DNA from: Verrucomicrobiota bacterium
GTDB taxonomy: Bacteria > Verrucomicrobiota > Verrucomicrobiia > Opitutales > Puniceicoccaceae
DNA length: 64,000 nt
Assembly: GCA_038744685.1 (NCBI GenBank)
Contig: JBCDMB010000016.1
Location: forward strand, 1 to 64,000
Reading direction: 5' to 3'
Position 1 is the first letter of the stretch. Every line of letters begins with the position of its first letter. This document shows, piece by piece, positions 53,614 through 64,000 of the stretch. The notes beneath the pieces are model-generated. The model searched no databases, had not been told where the DNA came from, and saw only the letters and a list, made by a program, of their open reading frames with translations. The position numbers were made by a program, and so were the translations under genes.

Positions 53614-53693
53614 CTTTTCATGGCAAATTCGGATAAAGATATCACGGCGAAGTGGATTCTCTGCCTCGCGCAAATCATCCAAAACACAAAAAA

Positions 53694-54090
53694 ATGAAAA
53701 GTCTTGCTCCTCTTCCTCTTCTCGTTTCGTCAGTCCTGACGCTATCCGCAATGATCGATCCTCCATCTACTCTCTCAGAGACCTCGAAAAGCTTAGCTGA
53801 ACCATCAGAGGGTGATTTGGAGTCTTCGGAAGATAGGCAACAAGTCGAAGTCGCATTCATCCTCGATACGACTGGTTCGATGAGTGGGTTGATTGAAGGA
53901 GCAAAGCAGAAGATCTGGTCGATAGCTCAGGAAATAGTTTCAGCAGAAGATCAGCCTCACGTGAAGTTCGCTTTAATCGGCTACCGGGATCGCGGCGATG
54001 ACTACATCACCAAAACCTACGACCTGACCAGTGATCTCGATCTGATCTATGCACACCTCATGGAGTTTACTGCAGACGGTGGTGGTGACC
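53694..54090 (+). pseudogene. Truncated secreted VWA-domain protein
   Basis: A signal-peptide start ([19 protein letters not shown]), then a von Willebrand factor A domain with the metal site DTTGSMSGL, then [17 protein letters not shown] and FTADGGGD. At about 54090 homology stops where the family expects PEAV, and the frame continues through 35 unrelated residues to a stop at 54192-54194 that is antisense to the next gene. About half of the domain is missing. It looks like a gene cut by insertion or deletion of the adjoining block. Confidence 0.65.
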
Positions 54091-54117
54091 TGGCTCATAG
54101 GAAAGCACTGTTTCGAG

Positions 54118-54534
54118 TTAGTTGTTATCGGTTTTTTCCGGGAAGGATTTCACGATCTTCCTGGGATCGACCGTTGATCCGTCGCCAAGGATAATGCGGG
54201 AAAAGACCACCTTAGCCGCGGTGACTTTTCCTTGTGACGGCATGGTCATCTTATAGGTCTGTGTTTCACCGCTTGGCAGATCGTTCTTCTTATCCTGGGA
54301 CACAACCCATTGTGCGTGATTACCAACGACCTTGTCGTCTTCACCCATTAAGAATATCCAAGCTCGTGCGCCTTTAATTAGCGTATTGAGCGTGTTTTCC
54401 ATCTTGAACTCAACGACTGTTTTACCAGGGGCACCAGAAACAACTTCGGGCTTGCCGACATAGAGCGCTTCCTGGGCTTGTAAGCTGGTTATCGCCAGAA
54501 GCGTGATGATGGCTGAAAAAAATAACCGCTTCAT
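54118..54534 (-). CDS. Secreted protein, unknown
   Basis: A 138-residue precursor with a signal peptide (cleavage likely after SLQA). The mature part has an Ig-like strand pattern: [50 protein letters not shown]. It overlaps the end of the upstream gene by 4 bases. The function is unknown. It ends the RHS-gene block, next to the VWA break. Confidence 0.6.
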
Positions 54535-54989
54535 CGTCTTAGGTTTTTAGTTCTTCGAATGAGAAAAATGTAAGCCGCTGCCAAGAGACCAACGATCAGA
54601 CCAGCACTGGATTGTTCCGGGACTATCGCGGTGCCGGATGCTTCAAATGATGGTAAATCCGATTGCGGTATGACAGGTAAAAGGTCCGTAACGATAATCG
54701 AAGGTTCATCGCGCAGTATGACCCAATTGCTTGGGTTTTGGAAAGAATCATAGGACGGTTCATCAATGATTAAAATACCATGAACAACCTCGATGTCTTC
54801 GCCAATTAAGTCGCCATCAAGGATCAATTCGCCTTGTCCAGCTTTGGTGATGGACTGATTCATCGTTAAGGCCGAGAGGCCGCTTTGGTAGGTCTGCAAG
54901 GAAAGCTCCGCAGACAATGGCTGAGTGAATATAATGAACGCGCTCAAGAAAACTACAGAAGATGGATTTAAAAAGGTTCCCGCTTTCAC
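54531..54989 (-). CDS. Secreted protein with PEP-CTERM-like C-terminus
   Basis: A 152-residue protein with an N-terminal signal peptide and a C-terminal tail of VPEQSS, a hydrophobic helix (AGLIVGLLAAAYIFLI) and RRTKNLRR. That is the layout of PEP-CTERM sorting signals processed by exosortase. The middle is acidic and Ser/Pro-rich. Its stop overlaps the next ATG by 4 bases. No exosortase gene is in the window. Confidence 0.6.
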   Translation of the reverse strand: MKAGTFLNPSSVVFLSAFIIFTQPLSAELSLQTYQSGLSALTMNQSITKAGQGELILDGDLIGEDIEVVHGILIIDEPSYDSFQNPSNWVILRDEPSIIVTDLLPVIPQSDLPSFEASGTAIVPEQSSAGLIVGLLAAAYIFLIRRTKNLRR

Positions 54990-54997
54990 TTTAATAG

Positions 54998-55462
54998 TCA
55001 GTTTGTGATTTCACTGCGATCCGAACAGTCTAAAGTTGTTTCTATTACATTTTTCCATTTTCCGGTCAGCATGCTACGCGTGGCATAAAGCTCAACGGAA
55101 CCATCATCTCCTTCCAGATAGATCTTGTTCACGTTATCTCTAAATCTTAATCCGCAGGATTCACATTTCAGCATCATATGTGGATGGTCCTTCGTCGGGT
55201 AGCTCTTGTCCAATACCAACTCACTTCCGCAACTGCAACGTGGGTATTTGGAGTCTTTGTGCCATCCAAAAAAACGACGGGTTGTTTTTGCATAACCGGC
55301 CAAGGAGAGCATTGAAAGAAAGAGAATGAGTGGCAGCAGCAGGAAACCAACTATAGCCCCAAATATCGCTGCGATAACGCCATGCTCATTGTATGCCCAA
55401 ACAGAGACCTGCACGGCAATAATGGCATTTATCAGAAAAAATAGAACTTCAAGCAGACTCAT
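54998..55462 (-). CDS. Membrane protein with zinc ribbon; candidate immunity protein
   Basis: A 154-residue protein. Two N-terminal membrane helices (LLEVLFFLINAIIAVQVSVW and GVIAAIFGAIVGFLLLPLILFLSML) precede a cytosolic zinc ribbon (PRCSCGSELVLDK, LKCESCGLRF) and a C-terminal part of mixed strands. It begins one base after the stop of the giant RHS gene, so translation is coupled. A small gene in this place behind an RHS toxin is usually the immunity gene; here this is a guess from position. Confidence 0.6.
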   Translation of the reverse strand: MSLLEVLFFLINAIIAVQVSVWAYNEHGVIAAIFGAIVGFLLLPLILFLSMLSLAGYAKTTRRFFGWHKDSKYPRCSCGSELVLDKSYPTKDHPHMMLKCESCGLRFRDNVNKIYLEGDDGSVELYATRSMLTGKWKNVIETTLDCSDRSEITN

Positions 55463-55463
55463 A

Positions 55464-58400
55464 TCAAGGACGGCTACTTGGATTACTTCCCATCGGAGTC
55501 ACAGTTGCACTATTTGCAGCATTTAGAAGAAATGGCGCGGACTGGAAAACGGAATCTGTTGGGCCAGATAACAGGCCACCTCTTTCTTTGCTCCTTCCAG
55601 CACCAAGAAAAACACTGCTCTCAAAGGCAAAAGGAAATGGTTCACCATTTTTACCAGCGGACATTATCCAAGCACCTGCCTCAGACAAGGCACGATGTCC
55701 GCGTGTCTCAGCCGAGAGAAGGCCTTTGGCGCCAGGAGTCGGGCTATTCCACCACGCATCCCTGAACTGTGAATGCCCGACCTCTTCAAAGAAGTTACGT
55801 TTTGCTGGTCCTACAATAAGTCCGATATTAACAGCATTCTCAAAGTTATCAACAAACGAAATATAGCTTGGGTCGTTGATGAACGCCTTACCATCGCTGT
55901 AAATTTTAACCGGGAAATCATAGGCTATTCCTTTGCCAGTATCCAACGCGGTATTAACCGGATCAACAAATACGCCGGTTGTGAAATCGGTGGTGCCGAG
56001 GCCAAAGTTGCCAAAGAAATTAGCCGAGCGATAAAGCGAGTATTCGAAAGTTCCAATCTGGCCCGTTTCAAGTTTCTGGTTCATTTCATGTTTAACTTGT
56101 GAGGTAGCGATTTGTGCGCCTTCCATCGTGTCTGGAATACTCAAGAATCCACCGGCTGCCGTCAGTATGCCTCCACCGACTTTTTGGAAGAAATTCGTAT
56201 CCGGGTCTTTCACAATAAGCTGACCTTGTCTAATCAGGCCAATCGACCAATCTTTCTCGCCAGTAAAATCAACGCCATGCACTACACCGTCTTCACCCTT
56301 TGGAAAGCGTCCAGTGGGATCAAAGAAATTGATTGGGTCGCCTCCCGCATAGCTGTAGAGATCAAGCGTGGCTTCATGGCCAAGCGGGTCGGTTGAGATG
56401 AACGATCCTGATATGGGATCATAATAGCGTGTTCCCATGCAAAACAGGCCAGTCGGATCAATTCTACGACCTTGCCAGGCAAGCGAGAGAACCAAATCGC
56501 CGCTTTCTTCTAAAGCCTTCATCTGGTAACCGGGCAGTGGTCCGTAGCCTGACATCTGGATTTCCGTCCAGAGAAAGACATCATCGCCGGTGTTATCGAG
56601 CGTGCCGGTATTAACATGCCCAACAACGTTACCGAAATTATCATCAATGATGGGATAGAAGGCTCCTGACTCTTCGTCTACGACTGCTTCAAGCCCTCCA
56701 ACGCCCTGAAAGCTTCCGTAGTCAGCATCCAAGTCTGGACCATGAAACTTCCACCAGCGTTTGCCCTGTGTTTCAACGGCTACTTCCAGAAACTCAATGG
56801 ACGGGTCATACCAGCAATGAATAGCTCTGGCTGCTTCCGCGCCGGCTTGCGGCGCATTGCTTGGCACGAAGGTTGTTTTGATGCGTCTACCGCCACCATC
56901 GTAAATCGCAGTCCAGGTGTAATCGGGAAGCAACGGAGTGGTGCGCGTATCTGCCTGCACGACTTTCACCAGCTTACCACCGGCATCCCAGGTCATGTTT
57001 TGTGTGACCTGACCACTGGCCCAGGAGCGTGCGATCAGCTTTCCTGAATAATCGTAGGTGTTGGACACTGTTCTTTGTTCACCACCTGCCGCAATCGTAA
57101 AGGTGCTGGTGCTGGTGCTGGTGAAGCTGCTCGAAGGGTGTGAGTGCTCTGCTTCGGCCCTTAAGGTATATTGGCCATCCGGCAAGGATAAGGGCACTTG
57201 CCATTGACCACTGCCATAATCCGGGTCTGGGAAAACGGTATTGACGAAATCCCATGTTGTCGGGCTTACGCCTTGGCCGATCCAAAGAGAAAACTTGCCG
57301 GGACCAACTGCATCACCTTGAGCGATAAAGGAATAAAAATCGCTAACCCGGTCTTCCTCCGCAATACGCTTGAACGCATCCAGGCCATTATTAGAGGGGT
57401 CTGCCTCCCAAAGCGTAGCGCTATCAGTCTGGTTCTCCGCCTTTATCCGCACGCCAAGATCATCATCATCGAATGTGTATTTCAGCGTTTCCATTGCCAA
57501 CGGGCTTTCCGGCGTAGGCTGGAAGGTCTCAGTTGCCAAACGGCGGTTCTGTGGATCGTATGTATAGGTGCGGGTTTCATTGAGCGTAGCCCAATTACTG
57601 CCCGTGCCATTCGTATGCAGAGAAGTGCAGCTTGAAATCTTTCCATCACTATCCCGAACAAGCGTGTTTCTGAACAAAAAGGCGTAGATATCATTTGCCG
57701 GATCAAGCTCAGTGAACAAATCGCGTTTAAGGACACGACCGCGAGCATCGCGCAAGCTATCATTGAAACCGTTGGATATCGTGTGCGTGCGTTTCACCTC
57801 ATAGACACTGGCTCCGCCTCCATACCAGACATTGGTGTAGCTGCGGTTGAGTTGGCCGTTCGTTGAGTATTCAAAATCCAGTGCCCAGCTATTACTGGCC
57901 GTTGCCGGGATGATTTGATCTATCATACCGCTGGCAATGAAATCAAAATCCATTGTCGGCGTCCAACTGCCTTTAGCCGGTATGCCTTCACCCATTTGCA
58001 GCGTTTCACGCCTACCTGACGCATCCCAAACCTGCACCAAATGACTGTGTAGAAGCTGAGAATTGAACGCATTGCCTGAACCTGCCCCAATCTCTACTTT
58101 TTCATCAATGATCTGTTTATATCCGTCATAAAGGCGGGCTATCCGCACCGAAGGAATCAGATCCGCGTCCGACGGGGATGAGCGTGTCATGAAAGTGGTG
58201 AGGCCGCGCAAATCGAATGATCGTGCAAGGGTGATATCGGGATAGTTTGCCGCGGTTGAAGTTGTTTCTTTAATCCGCAATGCGCCATCATAATCAAAAG
58301 TATGTGTGATCTGGTCAGCACTGCCGCTATTTTCAATACGGGTATTCAGCAGCCCGATATTATCACCCGTCGTGTAATAATTGAAGTCCACTCGGCGGGA

Positions 58401-61400
58401 AATGTTTGCGCCAGTGCCGCGTAACTGTTCCCAGGACATGCGCAGGGCGCTGTCAAATTGTGCTTCCCAGGTTAGATTGCCCGGCATGATGCGCTTTACG
58501 ATATTATTGGCGTCATCGTAATTCAATGTAACTTGTGAACTATCGGGCTTAGTCGTGGTGAGCAAGCGATTGCGCGAATCATGAGAGAACTGTGTTTCCA
58601 ACTGAAGCTCATCAAAGCTGTTGGTCAGATTACCGGCCGCATCATAGACTTGGCGACTTTTTGTATTGTCGGCGAAGACGGTTAAGACGGTGTTTCCGAA
58701 CGTGTCAGTGTAATTCTTAGTTATTAAAGTATTGGCGCTTTGTGCTCCAACACGTAGCACGCGAAATTCAGTGACAGCGCTATGGTTATCGTCATAGGCA
58801 AAGCCCGTTTCATCTTCGGTGACAAAGGTATTGGCATCCAGATAACCGATAGCAGTTGGCCGATTGAGCGCATCAAAATTTTCCACTTTCAATACATCCC
58901 CAATGGTTGTCTGGACCTGAAAAGGAACCGTCGTGCCGTAAACATAATTGATGGTGGTTTCTTGGAGGCTCGAGGCAGGTTGCCCGGAATCAGGGTGCGT
59001 GGCAGCGGGTGGACCAAGCTGACGAACAACACGATCGACACCATCAAACTCGGTTTCAGTGACGTAAGATACGCTATCCGTGGCAAACTCTTCCAAGGAC
59101 ACTGTATTTCTGCGTGTGTCGTAGCCCACAACGAGCTTGGCGAGCGTGTCACTGCCTTTGGCTAATATACGGGTCTCGGTTAGGGAAGTATCGTCATAAG
59201 TATGCGTCCAGACGGCATCATTGGATAATGTGCGAGTCTTAACCCGCCCATCCAGATAGTAGTGCCACTGCGTTACCCGATTATCTGGCAAGGTCTTCTG
59301 CCTAGGCTGGCCGGTGATTGTGTAAAGCGTTGTGGTTACTCCACTCAGGGTATTTGTGTGTTGGTAGACCTGACCGCCCGGTTCATGAGTGAAACTTTCA
59401 GTTGCCACATCAGTGGTTCCAACAGCATGGGTAATGCTGTTATTGCGGCCAAGCTCATCATACCCCATCGCGGTTTCGTTACCGCGCGGATCGAGCGTTG
59501 AGACGAGACTGCCAAAGCCATCATATTCAAAGTAAGTGATAGCTTGGCCTAAGAAAGTGTCCTGACCGGGCACGGCTTCGATACCGCTGCCATCAGACTT
59601 TGCCTGTGAGCGCCAACGGACTTCAGCAATGACTCGACCGCCGCCATCATAATCACGGAAAACATAATCCTCCGGATTAAAACGGGGTCCATCTTCCCAA
59701 GTAACTTCGCCATGTTGGTTGTAATAGGTAATGTTCCATGAGAGCGCATCGTTTGAGCTGTCTGAAGCATATTGCGTTGAAGATTTGAGGCGTCCCATCA
59801 TGTCATAATCAAAGCGACCTGTTCTGCCAGCGGGATCACTTTCACGGATCAACTCACCTTTGGGGTTGTATTCGTAGGTTGTCACAATATCGGGCGCTGA
59901 TGTGAAGGTCTTTTGGGTTCTGGTCTCTGCAAAACCCTTAGCGCTGTAGGTCCAAGACGTTTCGGTTTTATCATCAACATCGAGATCTGATTGTGAGGTT
60001 GAACGCAAAAGAAGGCCGTGGGCTTCTTCTCCAGTTCCAATGACACGTCCATAGCGGAATGTTCTTTCTTGAATCCTATCAGTAGCGGACGGCTCGAGAG
60101 CATTGATTGCCGGATTCACGATTGCATATTCTGCGCTTTTGGTGGGGAGATACGCATAAAGATAGGTTCCGGGGTTGGAGCTGTCTTCCTCATAGTCAGC
60201 ACCACCGCTAATGGTCGGGTATGTGTGATATGTGACTTTTTGGGCCAGGCCGGGTGCAGGTGCCGGTCGGATGACTTTCCTTAAATAGTGTTTATCAGCA
60301 TCGAAAAAGTAATAGACAGGAACTGTCTCGGAAACGCCGTCACCCGTTACATCACCCTCAATGGAAACCTTACGCACTGATCCCACAGCATCATATTCAT
60401 AGTGGGTTTTCATGCCGCGCTTGTCTTTGAGCGTTTTGATGCTGCGCACAAAGCTGTTAGGCTCTGTGCCGTCAAACCAGTTATATGTCACTACGTAGTC
60501 GATGTCGGTATTGCCGGGGGCAAAACTTGTTGCAAGCGGATCAGCGATAAAATAATAGATGCCGTCTTTGTGGACATAGGCGGTTGTGACACGGCCTAAA
60601 GCCGGGCGCACGTCACTATGAACGTAAGTTACATCAAAGCCTGCTGTGACCCAGGGATCGCCATTGGGATTATATTCAAACTCAGCAACCTCAACTGGAG
60701 TCAGATCAAGCCCTACGGTCATATACTGCTTGGATACCCTGCGATACATCGGATCGGAAAAGGTCGCATCCTTCGGGTCGTATTGGCTGTCATATTCATT
60801 GACCACCAGCCGTCCGTCAGGCTTAGTGATTTTGGTCAGAAGGTGCGTTGAATAGGGTTCGTTATTTTCGTCCGCATCCAGCAGGATTTGATAGTCATAT
60901 TTGATCGTGGAGTTATCCGGCAAAGTGACTGAAATCATGTCGCCAAATCCGTCGTAGGCGTAATTAACCCTGCGACCGTCATTGGTGAAAATTTCCGTGA
61001 CCTGGCTGCGCACATTATAAACAAAGCCTAGGAAATTGCCGTTGCTGCTTTCGATCCGGCGTAACTGCCCGCATTCCGGCAGCGTATTGTCTTCATAGTA
61101 GAAAAAATCGAGAGCATTACCAAAGGGATCGCGCCATTCTTCCAGATAGGGACGCTCACGCGTGATGGTATCAGTTCCATCGGTAACGGGGAAGGAACGC
61201 ACCTTGTATTTAGCCACATGACCGTTGGCCTTGTAGAGTTTATAAATTTCATCCGAGCCATCTGTGGTCTTTTCGATGTAGGCGCTAAAAGGATTGGTCT
61301 GTCCGCCAATATCACCGCCATTAAAATTATTGAGCTGTTCATTGTCCGTCGGTTCCGGCTCCCATCTTTCAGGAGAAGAACTGACGACTTTGCGGTAAGC

Positions 61401-64000
61401 TACAACGGAACCGTCAGGCTCTGCGGCATAGATCAAATCCCCCGATTGCGTGATATTGATGTAAGGCATCAAGGTGAACTTCCAGCCATAGCCAAGCAGA
61501 TTGTGAGATTCGTTCATCGACCCGTAGTTACGCCGAATTTCCAGGGAGAGCGGACCGGGGATGGTCAAATCGATGGTATCAATGTAAAACTCCCCATTGA
61601 CCACGTTTACTGGATCGATCACGAAGCTGTTGCCCTGACCGCCAAAACTGTTCCATGACGTTTCACCTAGCCATCCTGTCGAAAACAAAGTTTCACCAGC
61701 AGTGCCGATATTGCCGCCAGCTGATCCGAAGCCAAGTTGCGAGTAGCCGGTGCTCCATGATGTTTCTGAAAAGCTGTCTACACCAAAGCTTCCACTATCA
61801 ATGCCGCTGAAGAATGAAATGGCATCATTATTTGTGGTAACACCGCTGGAAAAGAAGTCAGTGCCACCAGTGCCAAAATTACCAAGAGTGTAGTTACCCG
61901 TGAAATTTTGCGTCAGGGAAAGATTATCAAAATTAGAAGATTGAAAGATTGATGAGGGTAATGATGAACCCGCGCCGCCAGCGGCTTGGCCATCGATCAA
62001 TGCACCTACTTTTTCCGGGGCCATATAGAGCACGCCCATGCCGTTATAAGCGTTTGCATCACCGGACATAGCGATGTCAAACGGTGTAATGTATGCAGAT
62101 TCCCAACCTGCGGGTGTGTAACCTGCATCGTCCAGACCAAAAGCCTCATAAACTGTATCCCAAGCGTCCCCGGCTTCGGTTCTTAAAACCCCGAAAGTAG
62201 AGAGAGGATCAGCATCGGCTGCGGCGTCTGCTGCGGCAAATTCTGACCGGGTAAAAGAGTAAAAGCCCTGACCATTATTGCCTTCTGTTGGTGCGTGACG
62301 TTCATTGGCCAATCGCAATAATTGAACAGTCGAAATAGCATTTTCCTGCCCGAAAAACGTATTGAGAGCCTGATGTTCATGCGATGAACCATTGATGCCA
62401 TCCAGAAATAGAATGTCTTCTTGAACTTCAGCGACAGTTTCAGATGAAAATGGATGGTGCGATTGATTGCGTAGATAGCGGAAATTAATAGGGATATCGA
62501 CGCTTGGTGTGGTCCAGTTTGTATTGCCGCTGCCAGGGGTCGGCTCGATTGAAGCTACACAAACGCCGTATCGCAAAGTCGTGTGAACTTTATGCAGGTT
62601 CATGAGTTGGCGGTTTTCAATTTCCTCGTCCATCCAGAATGTCAGTCCGGTCATGAACATATTGACGCCGACATAATCCTGAACTGGTGGCGTTGTAGAT
62701 GCTCTTTCCATTTCCCAAAACTTACGGGCGTGAACATCGAGCATTTCCTGCGTTACACGGCCAGCATTGTAGCAAATCGCCGCAAGTGAGTTGTCCTTAA
62801 AGTTTCTGGTAAATTCGTCCGGCAGGACATCGGTTTGCATACCGCTGACCGAAATCTTTATTTCCAGTGCAGATCCGGGGTCATTCACTTCCTTATATTG
62901 CCTTGCCCAAATGGTGGATGATGAAAAATTGCCCGTCGATAAGGACACGCTTTCATCAAAGGGGCTGAGTTCCAGGGCGATCTTGTTGGTTCCCGGCTTA
63001 TAGAAGGCGTAGAACCGGCGATTATGCAGGTCGGCAAGTTTGAGTTCCTGCGTTTCAATCAGGGTAGAGCCGCCACCCGCTGTTTGAATCTCAAACTTGA
63101 TCTTTGCAAACCGAGCGTCATCGGCAGCGTCTTTGAGGTCATTGGTTTTAACAATGAGTGGTTCGGTGAAATTCGCATCGGTCAAATCGCCAATAATCAG
63201 GGGCTGAGGGAAATCGCTCCAATCCCAGTAGTGGTTTGTGCGATTGTAGATATTTAGGCCGAAATCATCGACGGAGAGGTTATCATCGGCAACCTGTTGT
63301 TGAAGGTAGCGTTCAAACAGCAGGGCGGCGGTATCGCGCCCATCGTTACCAATCAGGTTGTTGATGGCGGAATCATTGGTGAGGTATTTCTCCGCCCATT
63401 TTTTTCCGGAATCATACCCAGCGGGAAAGTAACCATAGGGGTCTAGACCTTCTTCAACAACAGTGTCCTTAATCCAAGGGAAAAGATGCACCCATTCGCC
63501 GTTTGAACCTGACTTGTCTGTATAGACAATCACCCACGGAAACTGAAAGTGAAGCAACGAACTGTCGATATCGGCACCTTCAATCAAATGCAGCCCCAGC
63601 ATGTTATTTACATGCCGGGTTAGTAGCCAGAGTCCCTGATTGCTGGTGGCCGATGTTGATTTGACGTAGGCGGTAGGATAGCCAGCTCTGCGCAGGAGAT
63701 GAACCAGCAGAGCGCATTGTTCCCAGGGCGAGCCCTGCTTTTCCATATAAGTTCCTAAAGCGCCACGCACGAGCTGTTGATTGGCTCTGGTTTCCGGTTC
63801 TTCGCCGGGAAGCGCGCCATAGACAAAAGTATTGGTCAGATCGATTTCATTTTGCACGAATGCAGCCAAGGCGATCGGGTCGCCAGCCAGGTCTTCGACC
63901 AGTTGATCCAACATTTCATGGCCTCGCAGCTCACTGCTGACATTGGATGGGATGTCTCCCAACCCGTCACCGTTGCCATCAGCCCATCTGTAGCTTAGTG
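55464..64000 (-). CDS. Giant RHS/YD-repeat protein with N-terminal transglutaminase-like domain (5' partial)
   Basis: At least 2832 residues; the frame stays open to the window edge, where DGNGDGLGD suggests a calcium-binding thrombospondin-3-type repeat. Order from the first TTG: a transglutaminase-like domain (residues 60-190; Cys in PWEQCALLVHLL, His in WVHLFPW), a Gly/Ser/Thr/Phe-rich stretch (about 680-785), a DUF6531-type domain (DPVNVVNGEFYIDTIDLTIPG), YD repeats to about 2500 interrupted by an Ig-like insert, and the RHS core GTRYYDPISGSFISTDPLG...NFFDPTGR at about 2510-2550. The 280-residue tip after it differs from the repeats and has no toxin motif I recognise. It fits a polymorphic toxin or a large secreted wall/surface protein. 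Base usage is more AT-rich than the ribosomal block. Confidence 0.88.
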   Translation of the reverse strand, partial: LSYRWADGNGDGLGDIPSNVSSELRGHEMLDQLVEDLAGDPIALAAFVQNEIDLTNTFVYGALPGEEPETRANQQLVRGALGTYMEKQGSPWEQCALLVHLLRRAGYPTAYVKSTSATSNQGLWLLTRHVNNMLGLHLIEGADIDSSLLHFQFPWVIVYTDKSGSNGEWVHLFPWIKDTVVEEGLDPYGYFPAGYDSGKKWAEKYLTNDSAINNLIGNDGRDTAALLFERYLQQQVADDNLSVDDFGLNIYNRTNHYWDWSDFPQPLIIGDLTDANFTEPLIVKTNDLKDAADDARFAKIKFEIQTAGGGSTLIETQELKLADLHNRRFYAFYKPGTNKIALELSPFDESVSLSTGNFSSSTIWARQYKEVNDPGSALEIKISVSGMQTDVLPDEFTRNFKDNSLAAICYNAGRVTQEMLDVHARKFWEMERASTTPPVQDYVGVNMFMTGLTFWMDEEIENRQLMNLHKVHTTLRYGVCVASIEPTPGSGNTNWTTPSVDIPINFRYLRNQSHHPFSSETVAEVQEDILFLDGINGSSHEHQALNTFFGQENAISTVQLLRLANERHAPTEGNNGQGFYSFTRSEFAAADAAADADPLSTFGVLRTEAGDAWDTVYEAFGLDDAGYTPAGWESAYITPFDIAMSGDANAYNGMGVLYMAPEKVGALIDGQAAGGAGSSLPSSIFQSSNFDNLSLTQNFTGNYTLGNFGTGGTDFFSSGVTTNNDAISFFSGIDSGSFGVDSFSETSWSTGYSQLGFGSAGGNIGTAGETLFSTGWLGETSWNSFGGQGNSFVIDPVNVVNGEFYIDTIDLTIPGPLSLEIRRNYGSMNESHNLLGYGWKFTLMPYINITQSGDLIYAAEPDGSVVAYRKVVSSSPERWEPEPTDNEQLNNFNGGDIGGQTNPFSAYIEKTTDGSDEIYKLYKANGHVAKYKVRSFPVTDGTDTITRERPYLEEWRDPFGNALDFFYYEDNTLPECGQLRRIESSNGNFLGFVYNVRSQVTEIFTNDGRRVNYAYDGFGDMISVTLPDNSTIKYDYQILLDADENNEPYSTHLLTKITKPDGRLVVNEYDSQYDPKDATFSDPMYRRVSKQYMTVGLDLTPVEVAEFEYNPNGDPWVTAGFDVTYVHSDVRPALGRVTTAYVHKDGIYYFIADPLATSFAPGNTDIDYVVTYNWFDGTEPNSFVRSIKTLKDKRGMKTHYEYDAVGSVRKVSIEGDVTGDGVSETVPVYYFFDADKHYLRKVIRPAPAPGLAQKVTYHTYPTISGGADYEEDSSNPGTYLYAYLPTKSAEYAIVNPAINALEPSATDRIQERTFRYGRVIGTGEEAHGLLLRSTSQSDLDVDDKTETSWTYSAKGFAETRTQKTFTSAPDIVTTYEYNPKGELIRESDPAGRTGRFDYDMMGRLKSSTQYASDSSNDALSWNITYYNQHGEVTWEDGPRFNPEDYVFRDYDGGGRVIAEVRWRSQAKSDGSGIEAVPGQDTFLGQAITYFEYDGFGSLVSTLDPRGNETAMGYDELGRNNSITHAVGTTDVATESFTHEPGGQVYQHTNTLSGVTTTLYTITGQPRQKTLPDNRVTQWHYYLDGRVKTRTLSNDAVWTHTYDDTSLTETRILAKGSDTLAKLVVGYDTRRNTVSLEEFATDSVSYVTETEFDGVDRVVRQLGPPAATHPDSGQPASSLQETTINYVYGTTVPFQVQTTIGDVLKVENFDALNRPTAIGYLDANTFVTEDETGFAYDDNHSAVTEFRVLRVGAQSANTLITKNYTDTFGNTVLTVFADNTKSRQVYDAAGNLTNSFDELQLETQFSHDSRNRLLTTTKPDSSQVTLNYDDANNIVKRIMPGNLTWEAQFDSALRMSWEQLRGTGANISRRVDFNYYTTGDNIGLLNTRIENSGSADQITHTFDYDGALRIKETTSTAANYPDITLARSFDLRGLTTFMTRSSPSDADLIPSVRIARLYDGYKQIIDEKVEIGAGSGNAFNSQLLHSHLVQVWDASGRRETLQMGEGIPAKGSWTPTMDFDFIASGMIDQIIPATASNSWALDFEYSTNGQLNRSYTNVWYGGGASVYEVKRTHTISNGFNDSLRDARGRVLKRDLFTELDPANDIYAFLFRNTLVRDSDGKISSCTSLHTNGTGSNWATLNETRTYTYDPQNRRLATETFQPTPESPLAMETLKYTFDDDDLGVRIKAENQTDSATLWEADPSNNGLDAFKRIAEEDRVSDFYSFIAQGDAVGPGKFSLWIGQGVSPTTWDFVNTVFPDPDYGSGQWQVPLSLPDGQYTLRAEAEHSHPSSSFTSTSTSTFTIAAGGEQRTVSNTYDYSGKLIARSWASGQVTQNMTWDAGGKLVKVVQADTRTTPLLPDYTWTAIYDGGGRRIKTTFVPSNAPQAGAEAARAIHCWYDPSIEFLEVAVETQGKRWWKFHGPDLDADYGSFQGVGGLEAVVDEESGAFYPIIDDNFGNVVGHVNTGTLDNTGDDVFLWTEIQMSGYGPLPGYQMKALEESGDLVLSLAWQGRRIDPTGLFCMGTRYYDPISGSFISTDPLGHEATLDLYSYAGGDPINFFDPTGRFPKGEDGVVHGVDFTGEKDWSIGLIRQGQLIVKDPDTNFFQKVGGGILTAAGGFLSIPDTMEGAQIATSQVKHEMNQKLETGQIGTFEYSLYRSANFFGNFGLGTTDFTTGVFVDPVNTALDTGKGIAYDFPVKIYSDGKAFINDPSYISFVDNFENAVNIGLIVGPAKRNFFEEVGHSQFRDAWWNSPTPGAKGLLSAETRGHRALSEAGAWIMSAGKNGEPFPFAFESSVFLGAGRSKERGGLLSGPTDSVFQSAPFLLNAANSATVTPMGSNPSSRP

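What the first reader, a model, noticed from the sequence alone, without database searches (positions are those of the whole stretch)
55464..64000. Giant RHS protein with transglutaminase-like front end and unassigned C-terminal tip
The combination of a papain-like/transglutaminase domain, YD repeats, RHS core and a 280-residue variable tip points to a polymorphic toxin, or to a surface protein that is cross-linked. The tip has no recognised motif, so it could be a new toxin type.
Basis: partly seen in the sequence, partly recalled or inferred. Interest (0 to 1): 0.6.

Follow-up and report, generated by a model that had tools for sequence, protein, structure and literature searches.

The report
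RHS toxin with unique tip
This is a giant secreted RHS protein of a known bacterial weapon design, whose front end looks like a dead enzyme and whose last 280 residues are a swapped-in tip, probably a toxin of unknown type, with its likely antidote gene directly after it.

Summary
The gene is intact, but it starts 196 bases beyond the window; the full protein has 2,910 residues with a Sec signal peptide. The front domain is transglutaminase-like only in fold: all three catalytic positions are replaced throughout the family, so cross-linking by it is unlikely. YD repeats and an RHS core follow. The last 280 residues have no detectable relative in any collection searched.

A 64%-identical homologue in another family stops matching exactly at the RHS core and has a different tip and next gene. 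Other relatives of the same body (23 of 384 genomes of the class; 47 loci in genome contigs) carry recognisable toxin tips: nucleases, a GH108 muramidase, a papain-fold toxin. Their next genes include SUKH and LprI lysozyme-inhibitor proteins. Across 34 loci, all 5 pairs with similar tips have similar next genes (0 of 10,000 shuffles).

This is a Sec-exported polymorphic toxin of the 'inactive transglutaminase-RHS' kind described by Zhang et al. 2012. The tip (55467-56306) and its probable immunity gene (54998-55462; two TM helices plus a zinc-ribbon-like motif) are orphans. The tip's activity is unknown and toxicity was not testable here. New member of a known kind.

The parts
55464..64000 (-). 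RHS polymorphic toxin gene (3' 2,844 codons plus stop; the start ATG lies at C16:64196, outside the window)
   Evidence: open frame without stops; full length 2,910 aa with signal peptide
63201..63941 (-). transglutaminase-like domain, catalytic triad replaced (pseudo-enzyme)
   Evidence: PF01841 in 20 of 21 members; C->P91, H->F/Y, D->F173; AF2 pLDDT 85 and Foldseek
61395..61616 (-). DUF6531 (PF20148), entry to the RHS shell
   Evidence: E=5.5e-15
56490..61019 (-). YD/RHS repeat region
   Evidence: PF05593 E=3.8e-28, TIGR01643 E=4.1e-24
56310..56489 (-). RHS-associated core, ending ...DPTG(R); expected self-cleavage boundary
   Evidence: TIGR03696 E=2.9e-16; the 64% identity to G023 ends here
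55467..56306 (-). 280-residue variable C-terminal tip, probable toxin domain, no relatives found
   Evidence: not shared with the 64%-identical homologue; no homologue in class, phylum, plasmid or viral searches
54998..55462 (-). s1, 154 aa, candidate immunity gene: two TM helices then CSCG...CESCG zinc-ribbon-like motif; ATG 1 base after the RHS stop
   Evidence: position as the immunity genes of relatives; TM segments; absent from G023 locus, orphan
54531..54989 (-). s2, 152 aa, secreted protein with PEP-CTERM-like tail (VPEQS...IRRTKNLRR), next in the operon; second immunity candidate
   Evidence: gene spacing and TM segments; no family
54118..54534 (-). s3, 138 aa, conserved secreted accessory protein that follows the variable cassette in related loci
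   Evidence: HMM matches in 12 loci, 11 of them downstream of the RHS gene on the same strand

Best explanation
A Sec-exported RHS polymorphic toxin used against competing bacteria. The signal peptide takes the protein across the inner membrane. A catalytically dead transglutaminase-fold domain probably anchors it or binds peptides. The YD repeats and RHS core form a closed shell that holds the 280-residue tip and releases it by self-cleavage after the DPTG(R) core motif. The tip then acts on the target cell. The adjacent gene s1 (54998-55462), an inner-membrane protein with a zinc-ribbon-like tail, most likely protects the producer. Shown by sequence: architecture, loss of the catalytic triad in the family, tip exchange at the core boundary, recognisable toxin tips and matching next genes in homologues. 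Inferred: shell and self-cleavage (from known RHS structures), toxicity of this tip, the role of s1, and the target.
For: A G023 homologue is 64% identical over aa 13-2630 and diverges exactly at the core, with another tip and another next gene. 34 non-redundant loci of the family carry diverse tips; all 5 tip-similar pairs share the next gene, 0 of 10,000 shuffles. Homologue tips hit Colicin-DNase/WHH, Endonuclea_NS_2, Tox-GHH, Tox-PL-2, GH108 and PT-HINT, with SUKH or LprI next genes at several. Published description of the same architecture: PMC3482391, section on inactive transglutaminase domains. s1 starts 1 base after the RHS stop. No T6SS sheath gene found in this genome.
Against: This tip has no recognised toxin domain and no relatives, so its own toxicity and the s1 pairing rest on position and family analogy. 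The single-sequence structure prediction of the tip failed (pLDDT 30.5). How the toxin enters target cells is unknown.
Confidence: 0.83

Rival explanations
1. A large cell-surface or adhesion RHS protein whose tip is structural, degenerate or non-toxic, with s1 an unrelated membrane gene.
For: The tip has no known toxin motif or homologue, and no confident fold could be predicted for it.
Against: Exchange exactly at the core boundary; homologues with nuclease, muramidase and papain-fold tips plus SUKH/LprI genes; tip and next gene co-vary in the family.
Confidence: 0.1
2. A surface protein attached or cross-linked by an active N-terminal transglutaminase.
For: A transglutaminase fold is present.
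Against: The catalytic Cys aligns with an invariant Pro, His with Tyr/Phe and Asp with a nearly invariant Phe in 36 sequences; the genome's own active-type transglutaminases keep C, H and D.
Confidence: 0.03
3. A polymorphic toxin as proposed, but the immunity protein is s2 or an unlinked gene, or the target is not a bacterium and no immunity gene is needed.
For: s1 and s2 are both orphans between the tip and the conserved gene s3. The pairing at this single locus cannot be tested without tip relatives.
Against: In relatives the gene directly after the RHS stop is the one that co-varies with the tip.
Confidence: 0.15

Closest known systems
RHS polymorphic toxins with an N-terminal inactive transglutaminase domain (Zhang et al. 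2012, PMC3482391)
   Same: Signal peptide, triad-less transglutaminase domain, RHS repeats, variable C-terminal toxin; Sec/T2SS class; Verrucomicrobia among the hosts of several toxin types listed there.
   Different: The tip here matches none of the Pfam or NCBIfam models tested; no Ig-like domain was detected in this protein, unlike some members; a separate upstream gene B ends in an Ig-like strand.
G023 homologue (L019), same order, other family
   Same: 64% identity over aa 13-2630; same flanking genes A, B and s3.
   Different: Different tip and different next gene (TM protein without the zinc-ribbon-like motif).
WapA of Bacillus subtilis (from own knowledge, not tested here)
   Same: Sec-exported RHS/YD protein with variable toxic tip and adjacent immunity gene.
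   Different: Gram-positive wall-associated protein, no transglutaminase-like domain.
T6SS Rhs effectors
   Same: RHS shell, core motif and C-terminal toxin.
   Different: No PAAR domain found; no VipA/TssB gene found in this genome.

Membership tests
Polymorphic toxin, inactive transglutaminase-RHS type | N-terminal Sec signal peptide or TM helix | tested here: met
   MKALTLSVAISVISALTAFGQ at the true start, C16:64196
Polymorphic toxin, inactive transglutaminase-RHS type | Transglutaminase-fold domain after the signal peptide with catalytic residues lost | tested here: met
Polymorphic toxin, inactive transglutaminase-RHS type | RHS/YD repeat array and RHS-associated core | tested here: met
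Polymorphic toxin, inactive transglutaminase-RHS type | C-terminal tip exchanged between close homologues at the core boundary | tested here: met
Polymorphic toxin, inactive transglutaminase-RHS type | Adjacent immunity gene specific to the tip | tested here: inconclusive
   Met for the family. For this locus s1 is in the right place, but tip and s1 have no relatives.
Polymorphic toxin, inactive transglutaminase-RHS type | Toxic tip neutralised by the immunity protein | not testable with these tools
   needs expression experiments
T6SS Rhs effector | PAAR/VgrG link and a T6SS in the genome | tested here: not met
   no PAAR in the domain scan of the window part; no T6SS_VipA match in a 97.8% complete genome
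Active transglutaminase | Cys-His-Asp catalytic triad | tested here: not met
   P91, F/Y and F173 at the aligned positions

The most novel reading that the evidence does not exclude
The tip is a toxin of a fold and activity not yet described, neutralised by a two-helix membrane protein with a cytosolic zinc ribbon, in an operon with a conserved, undescribed accessory protein (s3) that follows the exchangeable cassette.
Probability: 0.45. Interest if true: 0.45.

Novelty: new member of a known kind. Interest (0 to 1): 0.33.

Why it matters
It gives a tip-immunity pair with no match in the libraries searched and a clean experimental test. It also shows, with tip/next-gene co-variation over 34 loci, that the inactive-transglutaminase RHS proteins of Verrucomicrobiota and relatives behave as a polymorphic toxin family. 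The conserved accessory genes (s3, A, B) offer a handle on how such Sec-exported RHS toxins are assembled or displayed without a T6SS.

Tried and rejected
A single-sequence AlphaFold2 model of the tip is unusable (pLDDT 30.5), so no fold search was made with it. A lone PDB match of the tip (8au6, E=0.28) and one of s1 (2xqn, E=1.6) are chance level. The weak phylum-wide matches of the tip (E=0.001 and worse, many across stop codons) are treated as chance, as is the 0.006 match of s1 in G081. The first genome-contig scan, with the whole protein, found nothing, as its patterns were too specific; the alignment of the front domain worked. A fusion of gene B to the RHS gene by frameshift was considered and dropped: the RHS protein has its own signal peptide. 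Active transglutaminase and T6SS delivery were rejected on the evidence above. Base composition does not mark the tip clearly as foreign: GC 0.473 for the tip against a body mean of 0.495, sd 0.015; s1 is lower at 0.439.

Full report
Observation. The frame 55464-63998 on the minus strand is open throughout. The window is contig C16:1-64000 of a genome of 56 contigs; the contig goes on to 65822. The gene's real start is an ATG at C16:64196, giving 2,910 residues and a signal peptide. DUF6531, YD/RHS repeats and the RHS-associated core are all significant. The core ends RYYDPISGSFISTDPLGHEATLDLYSYAGGDPINFFDPTGR, after which come 280 residues without any significant Pfam, NCBIfam, PADLOC or PDB match.

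Front end. In this protein alone the transglutaminase match is below the curated cut-off (16.4 against 23 bits). In an alignment of 21 relatives, 20 members match PF01841, the best at 5e-7. A model from 36 aligned sequences has pLDDT 85, and its PDB neighbours include transglutaminase 2, factor XIII, TgpA and putative transglutaminase-fold proteases, with no E-value below 0.001. The motif GSPWEQCALLVHLLRRAGYP aligns without gaps to GVCQDFAHVMLSILRTGGIP of a transglutaminase of the same genome: the catalytic Cys is at the invariant Pro91. By motif, the His of HAWVEV corresponds to Phe/Tyr in (N)YPWV, and the Asp of LDPT to Phe173 in LFPW, which is nearly invariant; this second part rests on reading the motifs, because the profile alignment covered only the Cys region. 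The domain is therefore most likely a conserved pseudo-enzyme. Zhang et al. 2012 describe such inactive transglutaminase domains right after a signal peptide and before RHS repeats in toxins with several kinds of tips, and suggest surface anchoring by peptide binding (PMC3482391).

Tip exchange. The closest relative found, G023 (same order, other family), is 64% identical over residues 13-2630, and the match ends exactly at the core. Its tip and next gene are unrelated to ours, while genes A and B upstream and s3 downstream are conserved. G011 (L020), much more distant in body, has a tip and a next gene related to those of G023 (tip E=6e-10, next gene E=2e-18). So tip and next gene travel together and independently of the body.

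Family evidence. The front domain was found in 23 of 384 genomes of the class and in 47 loci of genome contigs, mostly Verrucomicrobiota and some Chlamydiae by record title. Tips in these loci include GH108 with an LprI lysozyme-inhibitor gene next (L143), Colicin-DNase/WHH with SUKH (L159), Endonuclea_NS_2 with SUKH (L156), Tox-GHH (L126), Tox-PL-2 (L120) and PT-HINT (L119). Among 34 non-redundant loci (561 pairs), 5 pairs have similar tips and all 5 have similar next genes. The sixth next-gene pair, L138/L143 (both LprI), has tips that each show a weak peptidoglycan-binding match (PG_binding_3), with GH108 as well in L143. No shuffle of 10,000 reached 5 (mean 0.05). The shuffle does not correct for relatedness of the genomes.

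This locus. The tip and s1 have no relative in 384 genomes of the class, neither has one in the plasmid collection, and the tip has none in the viral or phylum searches. s1 starts 1 base after the RHS stop, has two strong TM segments (3-21, 29-47) followed by basic residues and a CSCG...CESCG motif, and is absent from the G023 locus. By position and by the behaviour of next genes in relatives it is the best immunity candidate. s2, a small secreted protein with a PEP-CTERM-like end, is the alternative. Positive charges after the second helix put the zinc-ribbon-like part in the cytosol (positive-inside rule), which is inference.

Mechanism. Most likely: Sec export, surface display or release with help of the dead transglutaminase domain, storage of the tip in the RHS shell, self-cleavage at the core, and action of the tip on a competitor, with s1 protecting the producer. 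A T6SS is unlikely: no VipA match in a 97.8% complete genome. Steps shown are the architecture and the family-level pairing; toxicity, target, cleavage and delivery are inferred. Verdict: a new member of a known kind with an orphan tip.

Noticed in passing
window 54118-54534 (-); L019, L109, L120, L126, L131, L137, L142, L153, L155, L156, L159: s3, a 138-aa secreted protein without Pfam or NCBIfam family, lies on the same strand 0.3-2.8 kb after the RHS stop in 11 of 12 related loci that have it (upstream in L126), so it borders the exchangeable tip/immunity cassette; a conserved accessory gene of unknown role.
   Followed up: partly
C16:64202-64768 (gene B, just outside the window); L019:13967-14527; L020:13351-14904; L027; L089; L102: Gene B before the RHS gene ends in what looks like the first strand of an Ig-like domain (VNITFPANNSTLN, VTITSPANNATLD, ISITTPQEGQNY), and in other operons in a YD-repeat-like strand (SYDAEGNVEAAQ, YTLDEEGNITLVD), although the next protein has its own start; possibly a docking or donor strand.
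   Followed up: partly
C16:64743-65660 (gene A, just outside the window): A 305-aa secreted protein with no family model, found in 26 of 384 class genomes, often in several copies; in many loci with enough flank it is followed by a large protein, RHS or not.
   Followed up: partly
window 53652-54194 (+): A von Willebrand A-like frame ([15 protein letters not shown]...) appears to break off after GGGD and overlaps the end of s3 on the opposite strand; the operon may have truncated it on arrival. Judged by eye only.
   Followed up: no
L022:8893-9852 (G041): Behind an RHS gene with a tip lies a second RHS core fragment with another tip and a following gene, as expected of an orphan tip cassette.
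   Followed up: no
L027 (G000:C26:18000-36000): The same genome has a second A-B locus in which the transglutaminase-like and RHS parts are broken into short frames, probably a decayed copy.
   Followed up: no
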